From assembly GCA_018343915.1 (NCBI GenBank), contig JABRWF010000003.1, forward strand, positions 1,984,001-2,048,000: a stretch of 64,000 nt of DNA. The letters are read 5' to 3'. The DNA comes from Agroathelia rolfsii (taxonomy: Eukaryota; Basidiomycota; Agaricomycetes; Amylocorticiales; Amylocorticiaceae). The notes under the pieces were generated by a model, which was not told the origin of the DNA, did not search any database, and worked only from the letters and a program-made list of their open reading frames with translations. The stretch's first letter is position 1, and every line of letters begins with the position of its first letter. Shown here piece after piece: positions 35,131-43,221 of the stretch. Position numbers and translations under genes: made by a program.

Positions 35131-35643
35131 GTAAAGCTATGCATGTGTCACCAGGATGTATGAACATGGACTCCTAGGATGAGGGAGTATAAAGAATTAT
35201 GTCAAAGCTGAAGACAGTATATCCTACCTAGCAAAGGACTTTAAGAATACTAGTGATTGTATGTTGTATGGAAGCCTCTATTGTCATGGGTACACCCAGA
35301 CTCTCCTAATTTTTCTTTATTTTCCTGTATTTTTCTTGTATTTTTACAATTTTTCTTGGACTTTCTACACATTATTTATTCATAATAGACCGCCTAGGAC
35401 AATTGGTTACAGAGTACTTAGTTATATGACCGGCCATCATTATACCTTTGTACCAGTACCTATTAGTAAACAGAGTCTAGACCCTTCTAGTTCATTCCAA
35501 GTCTAGACTCTTGATCAATCAGCTGATGATGCAATGATTGCACCATCATGCTCAGTCATCCATTTGTACTATGTTTAGCATTCCTTTCTATTTCTGTCTC
35601 TGTGCACAGACCATTCAGAAGTGCACAGACCACCCCTGAAACT

Positions 35644-35689
35644 TATATAAGGACCCTGTAACACTCCCTGAAGGCCTTAGCTTCGACCT
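35644..35689 (+). promoter_or_regulatory. TATA box and predicted transcript start / self-primer
   Basis: TATATAA at 35644-35650. AGCTTCGACCT at 35679-35689 begins 35 nt downstream of the first T. It is placed as the transcript start because it is exactly complementary to 36140-36150 beside the LTR, as the first 11 nt of Tf1 mRNA are to its primer site. The start itself is inferred. Confidence 0.6.
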
Positions 35690-35700
35690 TTTGCCTTCAG

Positions 35701-35757
35701 GTGAGTAAATAAGCATGTACATCTCTCTTTACTATTTACTAATACATTTGCCTTCAG
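35701..35757 (+). other. Candidate 57-nt intron inside LTR-A R region
   Basis: Donor GTGAGT, branch site TACTAAT (35737-35743) and acceptor CTTCAG. The branch A lies 15 nt from the acceptor. The 11 nt before the donor (TTTGCCTTCAG, 35690-35700) equal the last 11 nt of the intron (35747-35757). The signals are kept in essentially all LTR-A and most LTR-B copies, and host introns are the same size. Splicing is predicted only. Confidence 0.65.
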
Positions 35758-35887
35758 GCTCATCGTCCTAGCCCTCTCCCCCTTGCCCTCCCTTTGTGCC
35801 TCGTCAGCCTAGGGGTTGTATAAGGACCTAAGCAAGCCATAGAACAGGCTGTATTGCCTGCCTCTCCCTCTCTATATCAAGTCCCTT

Positions 35888-35893
35888 AATAAA
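35888..35893 (+). promoter_or_regulatory. Polyadenylation signal in LTR-A
   Basis: AATAAA within CCCTTAATAAATCAGGG, kept across LTR-A and LTR-B copies. It is the likely signal for the 3' end of R. Confidence 0.5.
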
Positions 35894-36137
35894 TCAGGGC
35901 AAAGTGTGACTTAGGGTTATTACCCTCTAAGAAAGAATCTAAGCGTCTCAGAGTGTTTAGCACTCCCTTCTTTACTAAGCAAGCAGTAACAAGTCATTAG
36001 CCAACAGTAGCCTTTGGTGGAAAGTCTTCTAGACTTGGAGTACACCTTTGGGACCTAGTAGCGGTACATTGTTCTGTTTGTGGTGTGAGTAGGGGTCACC
36101 TCTGTTGTTTAGATAGTCAAGAGCGTGAGCCTTGACA

Positions 36138-36631
36138 TCAGGTCGAAGCTGACACCTGATCCAGTCTTGTAGAGCCTTAGCTCCAAGATTGTGTAAGAAA
36201 CAAATCGCTTACAAGTCAGCACAAGCAAGGAAAAGATTTTGTAGATACAAGTACTATACCTTTCACTTGTGAGCCTTATTTGTCATCGAACTGTTAGCAG
36301 AAGCAATTGGGGACCTTAATTACGTCCTTTCAACCTGTTAAGGCATAGCTGCAAAAGTACCAGTACATTCCTGGGAAATTGTGGGCCGTTACCCGAAGGC
36401 GTTACTGCTGAGTTAGTCAGCTGCTTCTAGGGACTCCTCACAAGGGAGTATAACTGCTTTGACAAATAAGGAGCTTTTGTAGATAGTATCTTTACTACAC
36501 TACCAGAAGGCTGTCCGCTTGCAGCCTTAGGAAGAAGAAGACCAAAGGATTTATACAGTGTTGAGCTATAGCTCCACTATCACACATAGGATCGCCAATC
36601 ACTCCCCTCCTCTCCAACACTACATCCAATC
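36138..36631 (+). other. Leader of copy 3 with self-primer site
   Basis: After the LTR come TC and then AGGTCGAAGCT (36140-36150), complementary to the transcript start. The arms ATCAGGT (36137-36143) and ACCTGAT (36154-36160) could fold over this site. No TGG-type tRNA primer site is present. The rest of the leader is non-coding up to the gag start at 36632. Confidence 0.75.
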
Positions 36632-37918
36632 ATGTCTAGAGCCCCATCACGTCATGGAAAACGCAAAGAGGAAACAGAGGAAGGCGAACTTGAAGGAGTT
36701 GGGGGCACTTCAGGAGCCCCTGCAACCTTAGAGGGAGCTATTTCTCGGTTATCTCGGACTATGGAGCTTCTAGCTCTAGGTCAAGCGGATATCCTCAAAA
36801 TGATAGGTGGCATGCAGGATCAGCATGCAGATATGACACGCTTTGCTAGTGGACAAAAAATCCGCTTTACTACAAAGAAGTCCAAGACAGGAGAAGACAA
36901 GGAAATTGAGGAGTGGTATACTCCTAGTCCCCCCAAACCTAAAGAGGTTGGAACAAGGCCAGAGAAATATGATGGGGATGCACGCAAATTCCGGACCTTC
37001 TTCCGTGACTGGAAGCTATGGATGTCAGACAATGAAGAATTGTATGGAGACCCTCAGAGTGAGGCCAAGCAGTTCATTCGCTGTCTAACTGGATCTGCAG
37101 CAGACTGGGCAGCTCACTTCATTCCTGAAATTATAGAAGCTGAGAAGCCTGGAAACCCAGATTTTCGAATCACTGAATTGTATGAGGAGTTTGTCGCTGC
37201 ATATGGCAACTTTGACTACAAGGCAGATGCCCTAACAAAGATCCAGAACTTCCGGCAAGGGACACACTCTGTTAGGGACTATACAGCTCGGTTCACAGAG
37301 TTAGCACATACAGCAGAGCTAGAAAAAGGGGATATGCGTATTCGCTACTGTGCTGGACTGAACTGGCGGATTAGGAACCTAATGATAGGGTGGAAGGGAT
37401 CGATGGTAACCTTTCAGAGCGCCGTAGAAAATGCAGGAGAAGCAGAACGTGCACTTAAGGAGATGGGGGTTTGGAATCCAAAGTCTCAAAACCAAGGAAA
37501 AGGACCTTCCTCGATAAGCACCACAGTAGCAGCTACTACAAGCTCCAACCCAAGCCTAGGATCCATAAACCCAGGGATTCCTACCCCAGGAACTACCCCT
37601 ATGAGCCAGGTGCAATGCTTTAACTGCCAGCAGTTTGGCCATGTACAAGCAGATTGTACAAGTCCTAAAGTCAGAAGAGCGCCAGGAACTAGACCCTGGA
37701 AACAGGCCCCACCTCCTCGTCCAGCTAGGAATCCAGCTAGGGTTGCAGCATCCACTTCAAGCGCCCCTAGCGTACCTACTACTTTGACTACAACTCCAGT
37801 GCCTCAACAAGTAGCAGCAAGTACAACACCATCTATAGGGGACCTTATGACAAGATTTGAAGCATATGAGGAGCAAATTGCACAGATGCGCGACCAACTT
37901 GCATTAGCGGGTTTTTAA
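36632..37918 (+). CDS. Gag protein of chromovirus copy 3
   Basis: A complete 428-residue Gag, the structural protein that packages the element RNA into virus-like particles. The N-terminus is charged and low in complexity. A retrotransposon-gag capsid-type region (about residues 95-290) contains the EKYDGDARKF and TGSAADWAA stretches. A single CCHC zinc knuckle, CFNCQQFGHVQADC, lies at 329-342. The proline/threonine-rich tail ends in a short predicted coiled segment (EAYEEQIAQMRDQLALAGF). The start is the first ATG after the leader and is the one kept in copy 1 and in the LTR-B remnant at 32050. The stop TAA touches the frameshift heptamer. Confidence 0.93.
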   Translation: MSRAPSRHGKRKEETEEGELEGVGGTSGAPATLEGAISRLSRTMELLALGQADILKMIGGMQDQHADMTRFASGQKIRFTTKKSKTGEDKEIEEWYTPSPPKPKEVGTRPEKYDGDARKFRTFFRDWKLWMSDNEELYGDPQSEAKQFIRCLTGSAADWAAHFIPEIIEAEKPGNPDFRITELYEEFVAAYGNFDYKADALTKIQNFRQGTHSVRDYTARFTELAHTAELEKGDMRIRYCAGLNWRIRNLMIGWKGSMVTFQSAVENAGEAERALKEMGVWNPKSQNQGKGPSSISTTVAATTSSNPSLGSINPGIPTPGTTPMSQVQCFNCQQFGHVQADCTSPKVRRAPGTRPWKQAPPPRPARNPARVAASTSSAPSVPTTLTTTPVPQQVAASTTPSIGDLMTRFEAYEEQIAQMRDQLALAGF

Positions 37919-37952
37919 AAGGCTCCCAGGTTGAGGCCAAAACCCAGGAGCC
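37909..37952 (+). promoter_or_regulatory. Gag-pol -1 ribosomal frameshift signal
   Basis: The heptamer GGGTTTT (37909-37915) reads G_GGT_TTT in the gag frame and is followed at once by the stop TAA. After a 5-nt spacer a stem pairs GGCTCC (37921-37926) with GGAGCC (37947-37952), with an inner GGTT/AACC helix. The pol frame (-1) is open from here with no stop. Copy 1 keeps the stem. The LTR-H elements have the same heptamer at the same place. Confidence 0.75.
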
Positions 37953-40900
37953 AAAAGAACAGAGTACTGAATACTATGTACCATTTTCTGATGTTTCTTC
38001 TTTTTCTATTTCTGCTTCTATACTAGGGGTAAATACCCAACATTTACATGTACCTATGAAATTACGTGGACAGTCCTTTTCTATTGATACTCTTGCAATG
38101 ATTGATTCTGGCGCTTCTTCTACTTTTGTAAATAAACACTTTGTACATAAAAATCAAATCCCAAAAAAATTGCTTCCCCAACCAATTCCTTTGTACAATA
38201 TTGATAATTCCTCAAACAAAATTGGTAAAATTACAGAGTATATTACAGTTAGTTTGGTGACAGGAGGAGTAGAGCGAGAGATACATATGAGTGTAGTTGA
38301 TATTGGAGAGGAAGATGTTATCTTGGGGATAGACTGGCTAAGAGCAGAGAATCCTGAGATTGACTGGAAGGAGGCAACAGTGGAGTTGAGGAAGGAACAT
38401 ATACATGCTGCAAAGGTCTTGGATGCAGTGGAAATACCAACAGAGTACCTCCTATATAAACAAGTCTTTTCAAAAGAGGAGTCTACTAGGATGCCTACAC
38501 GGAAACCTTGGGATCACAAAATAATCCTAAAGGAAGGGGCATCTATAGGCAGATCTAAGGTATATCCACTCGCAGTCAAGGAAAGGAATTCTTTGGATGA
38601 ATACATTAGGGAAAATCTTGCCAAGGGTTATCTTAGAAAATCTGAAAGCCCTATGAGCTCCCCCTTTTTCTTTATTCCAAAGAAATCTGGAGTACTACGA
38701 CCAGTACAAGACTATCGCAAACTCAATGATATCACGGTGAAGGATAGTTACCCCCTCCCCCTTATTAGCACAATTATAGATAAGCTAAGTGGAAGTAAAA
38801 TCTTCACCAAGCTAGATCTTAGATGGGGATATAACAATGTCCGGATCCAAGAAGGAGATGAGTACAAAGCGGCTTTTGTGACGCCTCTAGGACTGTTTGA
38901 ACCTACAGTAATGACCTTTGGCTTAACAAATGCACCAGCCACATTTCAGCGCATGATGGATGAGATTCTAGCCGATTTGATTGCATTAGGAAAAGTCTTT
39001 GTTTACATTGATGATATTCTAATTGCATCAAACACTCAGAAGGAACACTCTGAGCTAGTCCTAGAAGTGCTGCGGCGCTTGAAAGAAAACGACTTGTATG
39101 TGAATGCAGAGAAATGTAAATTCAATGCAAACCAAGTCGAATTCCTAGGACTAATAATTGGTTATAATTCCATCCGCATGATGCCTGAAAAGGTGCAAGC
39201 TATTAAGGACTGGCCAATCCCTAAGACAGTCAAAGAAATTAGACAGTTTAGGGGATTAGCCAACTATTACCGTCGGTTTATAAAGGGGTTTGGTGACCTG
39301 TGCAAACCTCTGGATCGGTTAACAGGCAATGTAGCATGGCAATGGACTAAAGAGGAGCAAAACTCCTTTGATGCGCTAAGGAATGCATTTGTTTCTGCAC
39401 CAGTATTGGCAATGTTTGACCCAAAAAGAAAAACTAGGGTTGAAACAGACTCCTCCAACTTTGCCACTGGAGCAGTAATCTCTCAAATGCAGGACAATAG
39501 TAGCTGGCACCCTATCGCATATCTATCTCAATCTCTCAATCCAGCGGAGCGAAACTATGAGATCTGGGATAAGGAAATGCTAGCAATTATTAGAGCGCTC
39601 AAGGAGTGGAGGCACTATCTGATAGGAACAGAGGAACCATTTGAAATCTGGTCAGATCATAAAAACTTAGAATACTGGAAAACATCTAAGGATCTGACTA
39701 GACGACAAGCAAGATGGTCATTATTCCTATCTGAATACAACTTCCTCATTCACTACAAGAAAGGAAGTGATAATGGTAGAGCTGATGCCCTCTCCCGCCG
39801 CCCTGACTTCCATAAAGATGATGCAGAAGACAATAAGGCGCAAATTGTACTAAACCCACGCCTATTTCGTATCAATGCTGGAAGAAGGGGACATGTTACA
39901 GTTGAAGGAGAAAAAGGTCTTCTAACCCAGATCAGAAAAGCAAATCCAGAACCAGAAGTAGCAGAAGCTCTTCAGGTGCTAAAAGATCTAGGGTGTCAAG
40001 GCTCACGCTCTTGACTATCTAAACAACAGAGGTGACCCCTACTTACACCACAAACAGAACAATGTACCGCTACTAGGTCCCAAAGGTGTACTCCAAGTCT
40101 AGAAGACTTTCCACCAAAGGCTACTGTTGGCTAATGACTTGTTACTGCTTGCTTAGTAAAGAAGGGAGTGCTAAACACTCTGAGACGCTTAGATTCTTTC
40201 TTAGAGGGTAATAACCCTAAGTCACACTTTGCCCTGATTTATTAAGGGACTTGATATAGAGAGGAGGAGGCAGGCAATATAGCCTGTTCTATGGCTTGCT
40301 TAGGTCCTTATACAACCCCTAGGCTGACGAGGCACAAAGGGAGGGCAAGGGTGAGAGGGCTAGGACGATGAGCCTGAAGGCAAATGTATTAGTAAATAGT
40401 AAAGAGAGATGTACATGCTTATTTACTCACCTGAAGGCAAAAGGTCGAAGCTAAGGCCTTCAGGGAGTGTTACAGGGTCCTTATATAAGTTTCAGGGGTG
40501 GTCTGTGCACTTCTGAATGGTCTGTGCACAGAGACAGAAATAGAAAGGAATGCTAAACATAGTACAAATGGATGACTGAGCATGATGGTGCAATCATTGC
40601 ATCATCAGCTGATTGATCAAGAGTCTAGACTTGGAATGAACTAGAAGGGTCTAGACTCTGTTTACTAATAGGTACTGGTACAAAGGTATAATGATGGCCA
40701 GTCATATAACTAAGTACTCTGTAACCAATTGTCCTAGGCGGTCTATTATGAATAAATAATGTGTAGAAAGTCCAAGAAAAATCGTAAAAATACAAGAAAA
40801 ATACAGGAAAATAAAGAAAAATTAGGAGAGTCTGGGTGTACCCATGACATAGGGCCAGTAAAGCTCCGAAATGGAATTGAGGAGTGGAACCAAGAAGAAG

Positions 40901-42354
40901 GCCTAGTTCTATACCGGGGAAAGGTTTATGTACCAAAGGATACCCAACTGCGTGCAGAAATTATAAAGAAATTCCATGATGCGCCAGCTGCAGGACATCC
41001 AGGGAAACATAAAACCTTAGAACTAGTATCACGCAATTATTGGTGGCCAAGCATGACTAAATTCATTAATGAATATGTAACCACATGCCCCCAGTGTATT
41101 GCAAATAAGAGTTCACACCAACCACCCCCTGGTTTACTTCAACCACTGCCTGCTCCGCAGAAACCCTGGGAACATGTGACAGCTGATATGATTGTAAAAC
41201 TACCCAAGTCAGGAGAATTTGACTCTATCCTAGTGATTGTAGACAAACTCACAAAGATGTGTCACCTAATCCCAACTGTTGAAGCAGTGACTGCAGTAGA
41301 GGTAGCAGGATTATATCTAAAGCATGTGTTTAAACTCCATGGTGTTCCTAAGGTCTGGACTACAGATAGAGGCCCCCAATTTGCAAGCCAGGTTATGAAA
41401 GAGATTCATCGTAAATTAGGCATCAAAACAGCCTTGTCCACTGCTTATCATCCACAAAGTGATGGACAGACAGAAAGGCTAAATCAAGAAATTGAAACCT
41501 ATTTACGAATTTACTCTAACCAAAGGCAGACCAATTGGGCAGAAAACCTAGAGGTGGCAGAATTTGCATTAAACCAAAGACAGAGTATGGCAACAGGGTT
41601 TACACCCTTTGAACTCAACTATGGGTTTGTACCAGAAATGGAGATTCTCCCTCAGCCTCAGCCTAAGACCATAGGAGCACAAGACTGGTTAGGTAACCTA
41701 AAAGAGGTCCAACTGGAAGCTCAAGCAGCTCTAGCTAAAACAGCGGAAACTATGAAACAGTACTATGATCAGAAAAAGAAAAGTTTCCCCCAGTTAGAAC
41801 CAGGAGCTAGAGTATGGCTAGATGCACGAAATATCAAGTTTGCCAAACAACCAAGTAGGAAACTTAGCCCTAAAAAGTTAGGCCCCTATAAGGTAGTCAA
41901 AAGAATTGGGGAATTAAACTATGAAATTGATATCCCAAAAAATTGGCATGTGCACAATGTCTTCCATGTAAACCTTCTACAACCATACCAGGAAAGCGAG
42001 ATTCCAGGTAGAACCCCAGAAGAGCCACCACCAGTAGAGGTAGAAGGAGAAGAGGAATGGGAAGTGTCACGCATTAAGGATGCTCGACTACATGGAAGAT
42101 GGAAGAAACTCCAGTTCTTAGTAGAGTACAAGGGATATCCAGGAGAAGATAGCTGGGAATTTGCACAAGATATACATGCAAAAAGACTGATTACCCAGTT
42201 TTATCGAGAAAATCCAAGTGCTCCTAGAAGAATCTCAGCAACTACATTTGGTAGTCTTCCATTTAGGACAGTAGAGAACCTAATACAAGTAGAAAGATCT
42301 ATTACTGGCTCATGGTGCATTGGACATAGGCGGTTTCGGGGAAACGCCCCTTAG
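37916..42354 (+). pseudogene. Pol polyprotein of copy 3, broken by a solo LTR
   Basis: Pol is read in the -1 frame relative to gag. The first in-frame ATG is 38056, but the frame is open from the gag end, which supports frameshift expression. Order: aspartic protease (IDSGASSTF, Asp near 38104), RT with YIDD (near 39004), RNase H (DSSNFATGAV; WDKEMLAII), integrase zinc region, core with the D, D and E residues (TADM near 41177, TTDRGPQF near 41362, SDGQTERLNQE near 41467), a GPY/F-type module (LGPYKVVKRIG), and a chromodomain (YKGYPGEDSWE). A reverse LTR-A of 856 bp plus a 5-bp duplication splits it before integrase. The insertion is 861 bp, so the frame is kept, but stops lie inside it. Otherwise no lesion is visible. 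Confidence 0.9.
39994..40849 (-). repeat. Solo LTR-A inside pol of copy 3
   Basis: 856 bp in reverse orientation, target duplication TAGGG (39989-39993, 40850-40854). It is close to consensus, so recent. Its right end is open in the pol frame, giving an ORF from 40759 that runs from LTR into integrase. Confidence 0.93.
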
Positions 42355-42365: not shown

Positions 42366-43221
42366 TGTCATGGGTACACCCAGACTCTCCTAATTTTTCT
42401 TTATTTTCCTGTATTTTTCTTGTATTTTTACGATTTTTCTTGGACTTTCTACAAATTATTTATTCATAATAGACCGCCTAGGACAATTGGTTACAGAGTA
42501 CTTAGTTATATGACCGGCCATCATTATACCTTTGTACCAGTACCTATTAGTAAACAGAGTCTAGACCCTTCTAGTTCATTCCAAGTCTAGACTCTTGATC
42601 AATCAGCTGATGATGCAATGATTGCACTATTATGCTCAGTCATCCATTTGTACTATGTTTAGTATTCCTTTCTATTTCTGTCTCTGTACACAGACCATTC
42701 AGAAGTGCACAGACCACCCCTGAAACTTATATAAGGACCCTGTAACACTTCCTGAAGGCCTTAGCTTCAACCTTTTGCCTTTAGGTGAGTAAATAAGCAT
42801 GTACATCTCTCTTTACTATTTACTAATATATTTGCCTTCAGGCTCATCGTCCTAGCCCTCTCACCCTTGCCCTCCCTTTGTGCCTCGTCAGCCTAGGGGT
42901 TGTATAAGGACCTAAGCAAGCTATAGAACAGGCTGTATTGCCTGCCTCCCCCTCTCTATATCAAGTCCCTTAATAAATCAGGGCAAAGTGTGACTTAGGG
43001 TTATTACCCTCTAAGAAAGAATCTAAGCGTCTCAGAGTGTTTAGCACTCCCTTCTTTACTAAGCAAGCAGTAACAAGTCATTAGCCAACAGTAGCCTTTG
43101 GTGGAAAGTCTTCTAGACTTGGAGTACACCTTTGGGACCTAGTAGCGGTACATTGTTCTGTTTGTGGTGTGAGTAGGGGTCACCTCTGTTGTTTAGATAG
43201 TCAAGAGCGTAAGCCTTGACA
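42366..43221 (+). repeat. 3' LTR (LTR-A) of copy 3
   Basis: 856 bp. It differs from the 5' LTR at about 13 positions, mostly C-to-T or G-to-A in this copy, including CG to CA in the primer segment. Confidence 0.93.

What the first reader, a model, noticed from the sequence alone, without database searches (positions are those of the whole stretch)
35690..35757. An intron inside the LTR that self-priming could restore after splicing
R contains a consensus 57-nt intron (35701-35757). The 11 nt from transcript position 12 to the donor (TTTGCCTTCAG) equal the last 11 nt of the intron, and this repeat begins exactly where the 11-nt self-primer ends. If the primer is cleaved off, strong-stop cDNA made on spliced RNA ends in the complement of TTTGCCTTCAG joined to exon 2. 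That is also the sequence at the intron's 3' end in the 3' LTR RNA, so strand transfer there would copy the intron back. This would explain how an intron persists in an element that passes through RNA. I know of no description of such a design.
Basis: inference. Interest (0 to 1): 0.9.

Follow-up and report, generated by a model that had tools for sequence, protein, structure and literature searches.

The report
Possibly self-restoring intron in retrotransposon LTR
In a fungal genome, families of a self-copying element carry a small intron in the repeat at each end, placed and flanked so that the step that copies RNA back into DNA could rebuild the intron after splicing; the sequence pattern is strong, but no RNA was seen.

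Summary
The window element is a Tf1/sushi-like Ty3/gypsy retrotransposon with 856-nt LTRs. Its 11-nt 5' self-primer is followed by an 11-nt unit E ending at a splice donor; the intron ends in an identical unit I. Of 130 primer sites that I could read in this genome, 122 keep E, intron and I; 66 of the 122 have E equal to I, and all 76 mismatches are transitions. The rule holds with other letters: TCTGCCTTCAG, 12-nt TTTTGCCTTCAG and CTTTGCCTTTAG, and CTTTGTCTTCAG behind a different primer. The repeat starts at nt 12 in each. CTAAY branch motifs lie in 116 of 122 introns, against 1 of 122 control stretches. Two features fit the model: U3 just before the start can pair with the donor, which could keep the 3' copy unspliced (clear in families B, C and D, weak in A, the window's family), and the LTR end pairs best with the E|exon 2 junction. 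Precise intron-less junctions are rare (3 hits; 151 A-type sites). Splicing, primer cleavage and strand transfer were not observed. Restoration is the best reading; packaging of unspliced RNA and foamy-virus-like poly(A) control remain rivals.

The parts
35282..36137 (+). 5' LTR of the element (856 nt, TG...CA)
35663..35675 (+). U3 arm ACTCCCTGAAGGC, complementary to E and the splice donor (35693-35706, one bulged U); upstream of the inferred start, so transcribed only from the 3' LTR (42747-42759, there ACTTCCTGAAGGC)
35679..35689 (+). inferred transcript start and 11-nt self-primer AGCTTCGACCT
   Evidence: exact complement of 36140-36150
35690..35700 (+). unit E TTTGCCTTCAG, end of exon 1, from nt 12 of the transcript to the donor
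35701..35757 (+). predicted 57-nt spliceosomal intron, GTGAGT...CTAAT...CAG
35747..35757 (+). unit I TTTGCCTTCAG, last 11 nt of the intron, identical to E
35888..35893 (+). AATAAA, candidate poly(A) signal; if used, R reaches past the intron
   Evidence: sequence only
36119..36137 (+). LTR 3' end, whose best partner in the leader is the exon junction TTCAG|GCTCATCG
36140..36150 (+). primer-binding site AGGTCGAAGCT
36632..37918 (+). gag reading frame (Retrotrans_gag, zinc knuckle)
37870..39990 (+). pol first part: protease, RT, RNase H
40850..42354 (+). pol second part: integrase, Tf2-type SH3, weak chromodomain; pol is interrupted by a solo LTR at 39994-40849
42366..43221 (+). 3' LTR (98% like the 5' LTR); intron copy 42785-42841; E here reads TTTGCCTTTAG

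Best explanation
The LTR carries a real spliceosomal intron inside R. In the 5' R the donor is free and the intron is spliced out. In the 3' R, U3 RNA just upstream folds onto the donor and keeps that copy unspliced. The first 11 nt of the RNA are cleaved off as primer, so minus-strand strong-stop DNA made on spliced RNA ends in the complement of E joined to exon 2. Because E equals I, this end matches I|exon 2 of the unspliced 3' R perfectly to its last base; after strand transfer the intron is copied back, and the new I is written from the old E. Shown here: anatomy, E=I in several lineages with different letters, sharp edges at primer end and donor, branch motifs, U3/donor complementarity, rarity of intron-less copies. 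Inferred: splicing, primer cleavage after nt 11, the 3' intron staying unspliced, transfer to I.
For: E and I change together: unit position 2 in 107 A copies is T,T in 90, C,C in 14, discordant in 3. A2 (8 copies) and a set within A1 both carry C; holding all 13 C-bearing rows of the tree together is rejected (p-AU 1.4e-80); changes on the tree of 70 copies: E 5, I 5, joint 6. Other families: B TTTTGCCTTCAG twice, D CTTTGCCTTTAG twice, C CTTTGTCTTCAG twice behind primer AGATTYRTTCT with its own 11-nt PBS. The left edge is at nt 12 whether the unit has 11 or 12 nt. All 76 E/I mismatches in 122 copies are C/T or G/A. CTAAY in 116 of 122 introns against 1 of 122 control stretches. Genome-wide both units at 113 A-type, 315 C-type and 105 D-type sites. 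U3/donor hairpins: 0 or 1 of 500 dinucleotide shuffles as low in 5 of 6 copies tested. Intron-less junctions: 3, with 151 A-type sites.
Against: No RNA evidence. For A, the window's family, the donor is hardly more hidden in the 3' context: +1.0 kcal/mol on average, costlier in 57 of 98 distinct copies, and equal unpaired probability (0.13 and 0.13) for the window copy, because the intron also pairs with its own donor. In B (3 copies) own E/I mismatches (1.67) are no lower than against A1 (1.57); A1 and A3 share the unit, so their own values (0.48, 0.81) are only a little under each other's. One of two B hairpins tested is no better than shuffles (77 of 500 as low); one of 11 C copies folds without U3/donor pairing. 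Only 105 D-type sites fit the strict two-unit pattern, with 571 primer sites. Only 3 supported independent pairs for co-change within A, sign test p 0.25; the five A1 rows with C as one clade were not rejected (p 0.617). Precise intron-less LTRs also fit deletion between the repeats. E=I also serves pairing with the LTR end (TTCAG part).
Confidence: 0.55

Rival explanations
1. Only unspliced RNA is packaged and copied, as in retroviruses. The intron persists for that reason, splicing serves the gag mRNA, and E=I is a relic of intron birth by duplication, kept by separate constraints on exon end and acceptor.
For: Needs no new step. Intron-less copies are rare under this model too. The unit is a good acceptor (pyrimidines, then CAG).
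Against: Does not predict co-change of E and I or a left edge at nt 12 with 11- and 12-nt units.
Confidence: 0.22
2. Foamy-virus-like control: the donor in R binds U1 to block poly(A) addition at the 5' LTR, and the U3 hairpin hides it at the 3' LTR so poly(A) can be added. E=I then reflects pairing of the LTR end with both E|exon 2 and I|exon 2 in the priming structure.
For: Published precedent for U3-dependent structure at an R donor (PMC3694450, abstract and section 11). AATAAA downstream of the donor in R. The LTR end pairs best exactly at E|exon 2 or I|exon 2.
Against: The pairing covers TTCAG, not the first half of the unit, whose first three letters match at 95-100% in each family. Poly(A) control needs no acceptor, branch point or repeat. 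Not exclusive of the best explanation for the hairpin.
Confidence: 0.2
3. DNA-level exchange (slippage or gene conversion) between two 11-nt repeats about 57 nt apart keeps them alike and now and then deletes the intron.
For: Gives the same intron-less product; 3 such junctions seen, one in a complete 799-nt LTR with TSD.
Against: No reason to stop at the primer end in families with different primers and unit lengths; standing copies differ by decay-type transitions.
Confidence: 0.08

Closest known systems
Tf1/sushi self-primed Ty3/gypsy chromoviruses (Tf1, Tf2, Tosmo, Tj1, Tcn1)
   Same: PBS complementary to the RNA's own first 11 nt, 2 nt after the LTR end; pol with Tf2-type SH3 domain; LTR end can pair downstream of the primer as in the published 'pretzel' (PMC10085805, passages)
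   Different: No intron in R and no E/I repeat is mentioned in the passages that I saw (PMC10085805; PMC7175516); the Tf1 original that I asked for was not held
Foamy viruses (major splice donor in R)
   Same: Donor in R upstream of the poly(A) signal; U3 nt just before the start change the donor's structure in the 3' LTR RNA (PMC3694450, abstract and section 11)
   Different: There the acceptor is not in R, so the 3' copy is not an intron (recalled); here donor, branch point and acceptor all lie in R and the intron end repeats the exon end
Engineered split-intron retroviral vectors (recalled, no paper read)
   Same: Strand transfer in reverse transcription sets the intron arrangement of the product
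   Different: Man-made, tRNA-primed, intron assembled from two places

Membership tests
Tf1/sushi self-primed retrotransposons | 5' end of the RNA complementary to the PBS (about 11 nt) | tested here: met
   35679-35689 with 36140-36150, exactly 11 nt; family C likewise; the RNA end itself is inferred
Tf1/sushi self-primed retrotransposons | Ty3/gypsy domain order protease-RT-RNase H-integrase | tested here: met
   in two pieces either side of the solo LTR
Tf1/sushi self-primed retrotransposons | Chromodomain at the integrase end | tested here: inconclusive
   PF00385 20.0 bits, under its cut-off of 25.1; PF24626 SH3_Tf2-1 above cut-off
Tf1/sushi self-primed retrotransposons | Three-duplex 'pretzel' leader | tested here: inconclusive
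   Junction/LTR-end pairing is the best site in the leader and differs by family, but exon-2 shuffles reach it in 79 of 2000 (window copy) and 159-795 of 2000 (three C copies)
Tf1/sushi self-primed retrotransposons | RNase H cleavage releasing the 11-nt primer | not testable with these tools
   no biochemistry
Spliceosomal intron | GT/GC...AG ends, CTAAY branch site, fungal length | tested here: met
   lengths 47-63 nt; some copies have decayed ends (ATGAGT, ATAAGC, CAA)
Spliceosomal intron | Spliced RNA | not testable with these tools
   no RNA data held
Foamy-virus-like donor masking | U3-dependent RNA structure hides the R donor at the 3' LTR | tested here: inconclusive
   predicted costlier to open in B 3 of 3, C 11 of 11, D 1 of 1; A 57 of 98

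The most novel reading that the evidence does not exclude
A self-restoring intron: a retroelement reverse-transcribes its spliced RNA by rule and rebuilds the intron at each first strand transfer, using an exon-end/intron-end repeat that starts at the primer cleavage site, while a U3 hairpin keeps the 3' intron copy unspliced as the template. Splicing may even license priming, because the exon junction lies next to the primer and pairs with the LTR end.
Probability: 0.45. Interest if true: 0.92.

Novelty: new variant of a known kind. Interest (0 to 1): 0.82.

Why it matters
Elements that move through RNA are expected to lose introns. If this is right, an intron can be an inherited, self-repairing part of a retroelement, and strand transfer can put back what splicing removed. 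It also links intron, self-primer and LTR end in one testable leader, and offers a fungal parallel to donor masking in foamy viruses.

Tried and rejected
Rejected: 'not an intron' (branch motif 116 of 122 against 1 of 122 in control stretches); 'one odd LTR' (151 A-type and 420 C-type sites); 'E=I only because both pair with the U3 arm' (in B the arm pairs mainly with AGGTAAGGG, not with most of the unit, yet one of three B copies has E=I over 12 nt).

Led nowhere: viral contigs gave no relatives; Rfam gave no match at gathering thresholds in 35282-36300. Of 7658 pol homologues 120 were listed; those listed with an organism name are from basidiomycetes (Lentinula, Phellinidium, Psilocybe, Trametes, Ganoderma), but no DNA of another species was reachable, so all comparison is within one genome. 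The one host PAPS reductase homologue with an organism name in the 120 listed is from Lentinula; species not identified. Swap tests were not fully specific: C arms pair as well with B donors (-18.2) as with their own (-17.3), and D arms with A donors at -18.7 to -20.4 against -22.2. In one search I mapped minus-strand loci wrongly; one search corrected it. One search stopped with an error after its table; the shuffles were run. The single B row was dropped before because its LTR end looked like family C. The tree used 70 of 107 A copies, those with long flanks.

Full report
What is there. The window lies in a 37.67-Mb, 8-contig genome; among the homologues listed for its pol and its PAPS reductase, those with an organism name are from basidiomycetes. 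The element has a 5' LTR at 35282-36137 and a 3' LTR at 42366-43221, gag and a Ty3/gypsy pol with a Tf2-type SH3 domain; the chromodomain match is under its cut-off. Pol is split by a solo LTR at 39994-40849 with TSD TAGGG. A PBS at 36140-36150 complements 35679-35689 exactly, the mark of self-priming. The transcript start at 35679 is inferred from this.

The finding's letters are right. From nt 12 the RNA reads TTTGCCTTCAG (E), then a GTGAGT donor; the 57-nt intron ends in TTTGCCTTCAG (I).

More than one LTR. A 28-nt motif around primer and E occurs at 151 sites with up to 3 mismatches, 0 for the reversed control. I could read 130 primer sites of four families, picked by primer, upstream bases and E: 122 keep E-intron-I, 2 are intron-less, 6 are broken inside the intron or have no clear acceptor. 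They include 94 of the 100 sites listed. The parser chose the acceptor most like E, a small bias. Intron lengths run from 47 to 63 nt and interiors differ widely, but 116 of 122 carry CTAAY at a nearly constant distance from the acceptor within each family, against 1 of 122 in 34-nt control stretches. That is how a working fungal intron looks. No RNA was available.

E and I go together. E equals I in 66 of 122; all 76 mismatches over 1357 positions are transitions, as expected from decay of dead copies. Identity starts abruptly at nt 12: primer-side positions match at 0-34% in A2, A3 and C and in A1 but for one position at 73% (B and D, with 3 and 1 copies, say little), while the first three unit positions match at 95-100% in each family. 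The letters differ between lineages: A TTTGCCTTCAG, A2 TCTGCCTTCAG, B TTTTGCCTTCAG or TCTTGCC-type, D CTTTGCCTTTAG, C CTTTGTCTTCAG behind the primer AGATTYRTTCT, whose PBS, AGAAYRAATCT, again pairs over exactly 11 nt. In 107 A copies unit position 2 is T,T in 90, C,C in 14 and discordant in 3. On a tree of 70 A copies built without the units it changed 5 times in E, 5 in I, 6 jointly; holding all 13 C-bearing copies together is rejected (p-AU 1.4e-80), holding the five A1 copies together is not (0.617, the held tree scoring higher). So two co-changes within A are supported; supported independent pairs are only 3, sign test p 0.25. Against: B copies (n=3) have 1.67 own mismatches, no better than against A1 (1.57).

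Genome-wide counts. Both units around a donor: 113 A-type sites (151 primer sites), 315 C-type (420), 105 D-type (571 primer sites with up to one mismatch). The two-unit patterns allow no mismatch beyond named transitions, so they are lower bounds, but the D share is low and unexplained. Intron-less junctions: 3 exact for A (two read in context); for C 1 exact and 2 with one mismatch, the other 43 hits at three mismatches not checked. Of 58 complete A-type LTRs in readable DNA, 28 have a perfect 5-bp TSD; 27 of these have full length (836-857 nt) and 1 lacks exactly the intron (799 nt, C2:2138695-2139493, TSD TTGGC). Insertions thus normally arrive with the intron.

The U3 arm. Just upstream of the inferred start lies a stretch complementary to E plus the donor: A ACTCCCTGAAGGC with GCCTTCAGGtGAGT; B CCCTTACCTAAA with TTTAGGTAAGGG; C ACCTGAAGAC with GTCTTCAGGT; D ACTTGCaCTGAAGGC with GCCTTTAGGCAAGT. 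In 73 distinct A contexts on average 7.3 of 9 donor letters pair with U3; one of 11 C copies folds without this pairing. Six copies were tested against 500 dinucleotide shuffles: A, one B, two C and D had 0 or 1 shuffles as low; the other B copy had 77. U3 is transcribed only from the 3' LTR, so only the 3' intron copy could be masked. Cost to open the donor in the 3' context exceeds the 5' context by 5.6 (B, 3 of 3 copies), 7.4 (C, 11 of 11) and 6.8 kcal/mol (D, 1 of 1), but only 1.0 for A (57 of 98), because A introns pair with their own donor; for the window copy the unpaired probability of the donor is 0.13 in both contexts. With only 60 nt downstream, as in folding during transcription, the window copy differs more, 6.2 against 15.6. 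Arms and donors are partly family-specific: B arms pair at -19.0 with B donors and -7.9 to -9.2 with others; C arms prefer C (-17.3) over A and D donors but not over B donors (-18.2). Foamy viruses do something similar: the donor lies in R, and RNA with U3 nt -13 to -1 has a different structure at the donor, which the authors link to poly(A) addition at the 3' LTR (PMC3694450, abstract and section 11). So this part has a precedent, and poly(A) control is a serious rival or added function.

The priming structure. Tf1 needs a three-duplex leader in which PBS-neighbouring sequence pairs with LTR sequence downstream of the primer (PMC10085805, passages). Here the last 19 nt of the LTR find their best partner in the leader at the exon junction TTCAG|GCTCATCG, and equally at I|exon 2 in unspliced RNA. 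C junctions pair at -13.6 with C LTR ends against -6.4 to -7.4 with A ends; A1 junctions at -15.1 with their own ends against -10.1 with C ends, but A2 and A3 differ less (-11.8 and -11.0 own, -10.2 and -8.3 with C ends); unspliced E+intron pairs at -5.9 to -10.1 with own ends. Shuffling exon 2 reaches the observed energy in 79 of 2000 for the window copy and 159 to 795 of 2000 for three C copies, so this is suggestive only.

How it most likely works. The 5' intron is spliced; the primer is cut off; strong-stop DNA ends at nt 12 in the complement of E|exon 2; it anneals to I|exon 2 of an unspliced 3' R and copies the intron back, writing the new I from the old E. This explains both edges of the repeat and the co-changes. 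No step in this account was observed.

Novelty. Ten answered searches of an open-access library showed, in the titles and abstract starts listed (searches listed 15 of 51 and 12 of 50 papers), no description of an intron within R or of such restoration; most subscription papers, including the Tf1 original that I asked for, are not held. The element is a Tf1/sushi-like retrotransposon; the intron design would be new.

Noticed in passing
35663-35675 with 35693-35706; 3' LTR 42747-42759: U3 end complementary to the splice donor in four families with different letters; a possible donor mask at the 3' LTR only.
   Followed up: yes
36119-36137: LTR end pairs best with the exon junction, as if splicing could license the priming structure.
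   Followed up: partly
window 18433, 25530, 29338 (- strand): A second self-priming family (C) with primer AGATTYRTTCT and the same intron design; 420 sites in the genome with up to 3 mismatches.
   Followed up: partly
genome contigs C1, C2, C3, C4 and others: 571 primer sites of family D, against 105 sites that fit the strict two-unit pattern; what the others look like is unknown.
   Followed up: no
C2:2138695-2139493 (L031): Complete intron-less solo LTR, 799 nt, with TSD TTGGC.
   Followed up: partly
39994-40849: Solo LTR of the same family, TSD TAGGG, inserted into pol of the window element.
   Followed up: yes
35704-35711 with 35733-35740: The 57-nt A1 intron can fold AGTAAATA on TATTTACT, joining donor and branch region.
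   Followed up: no
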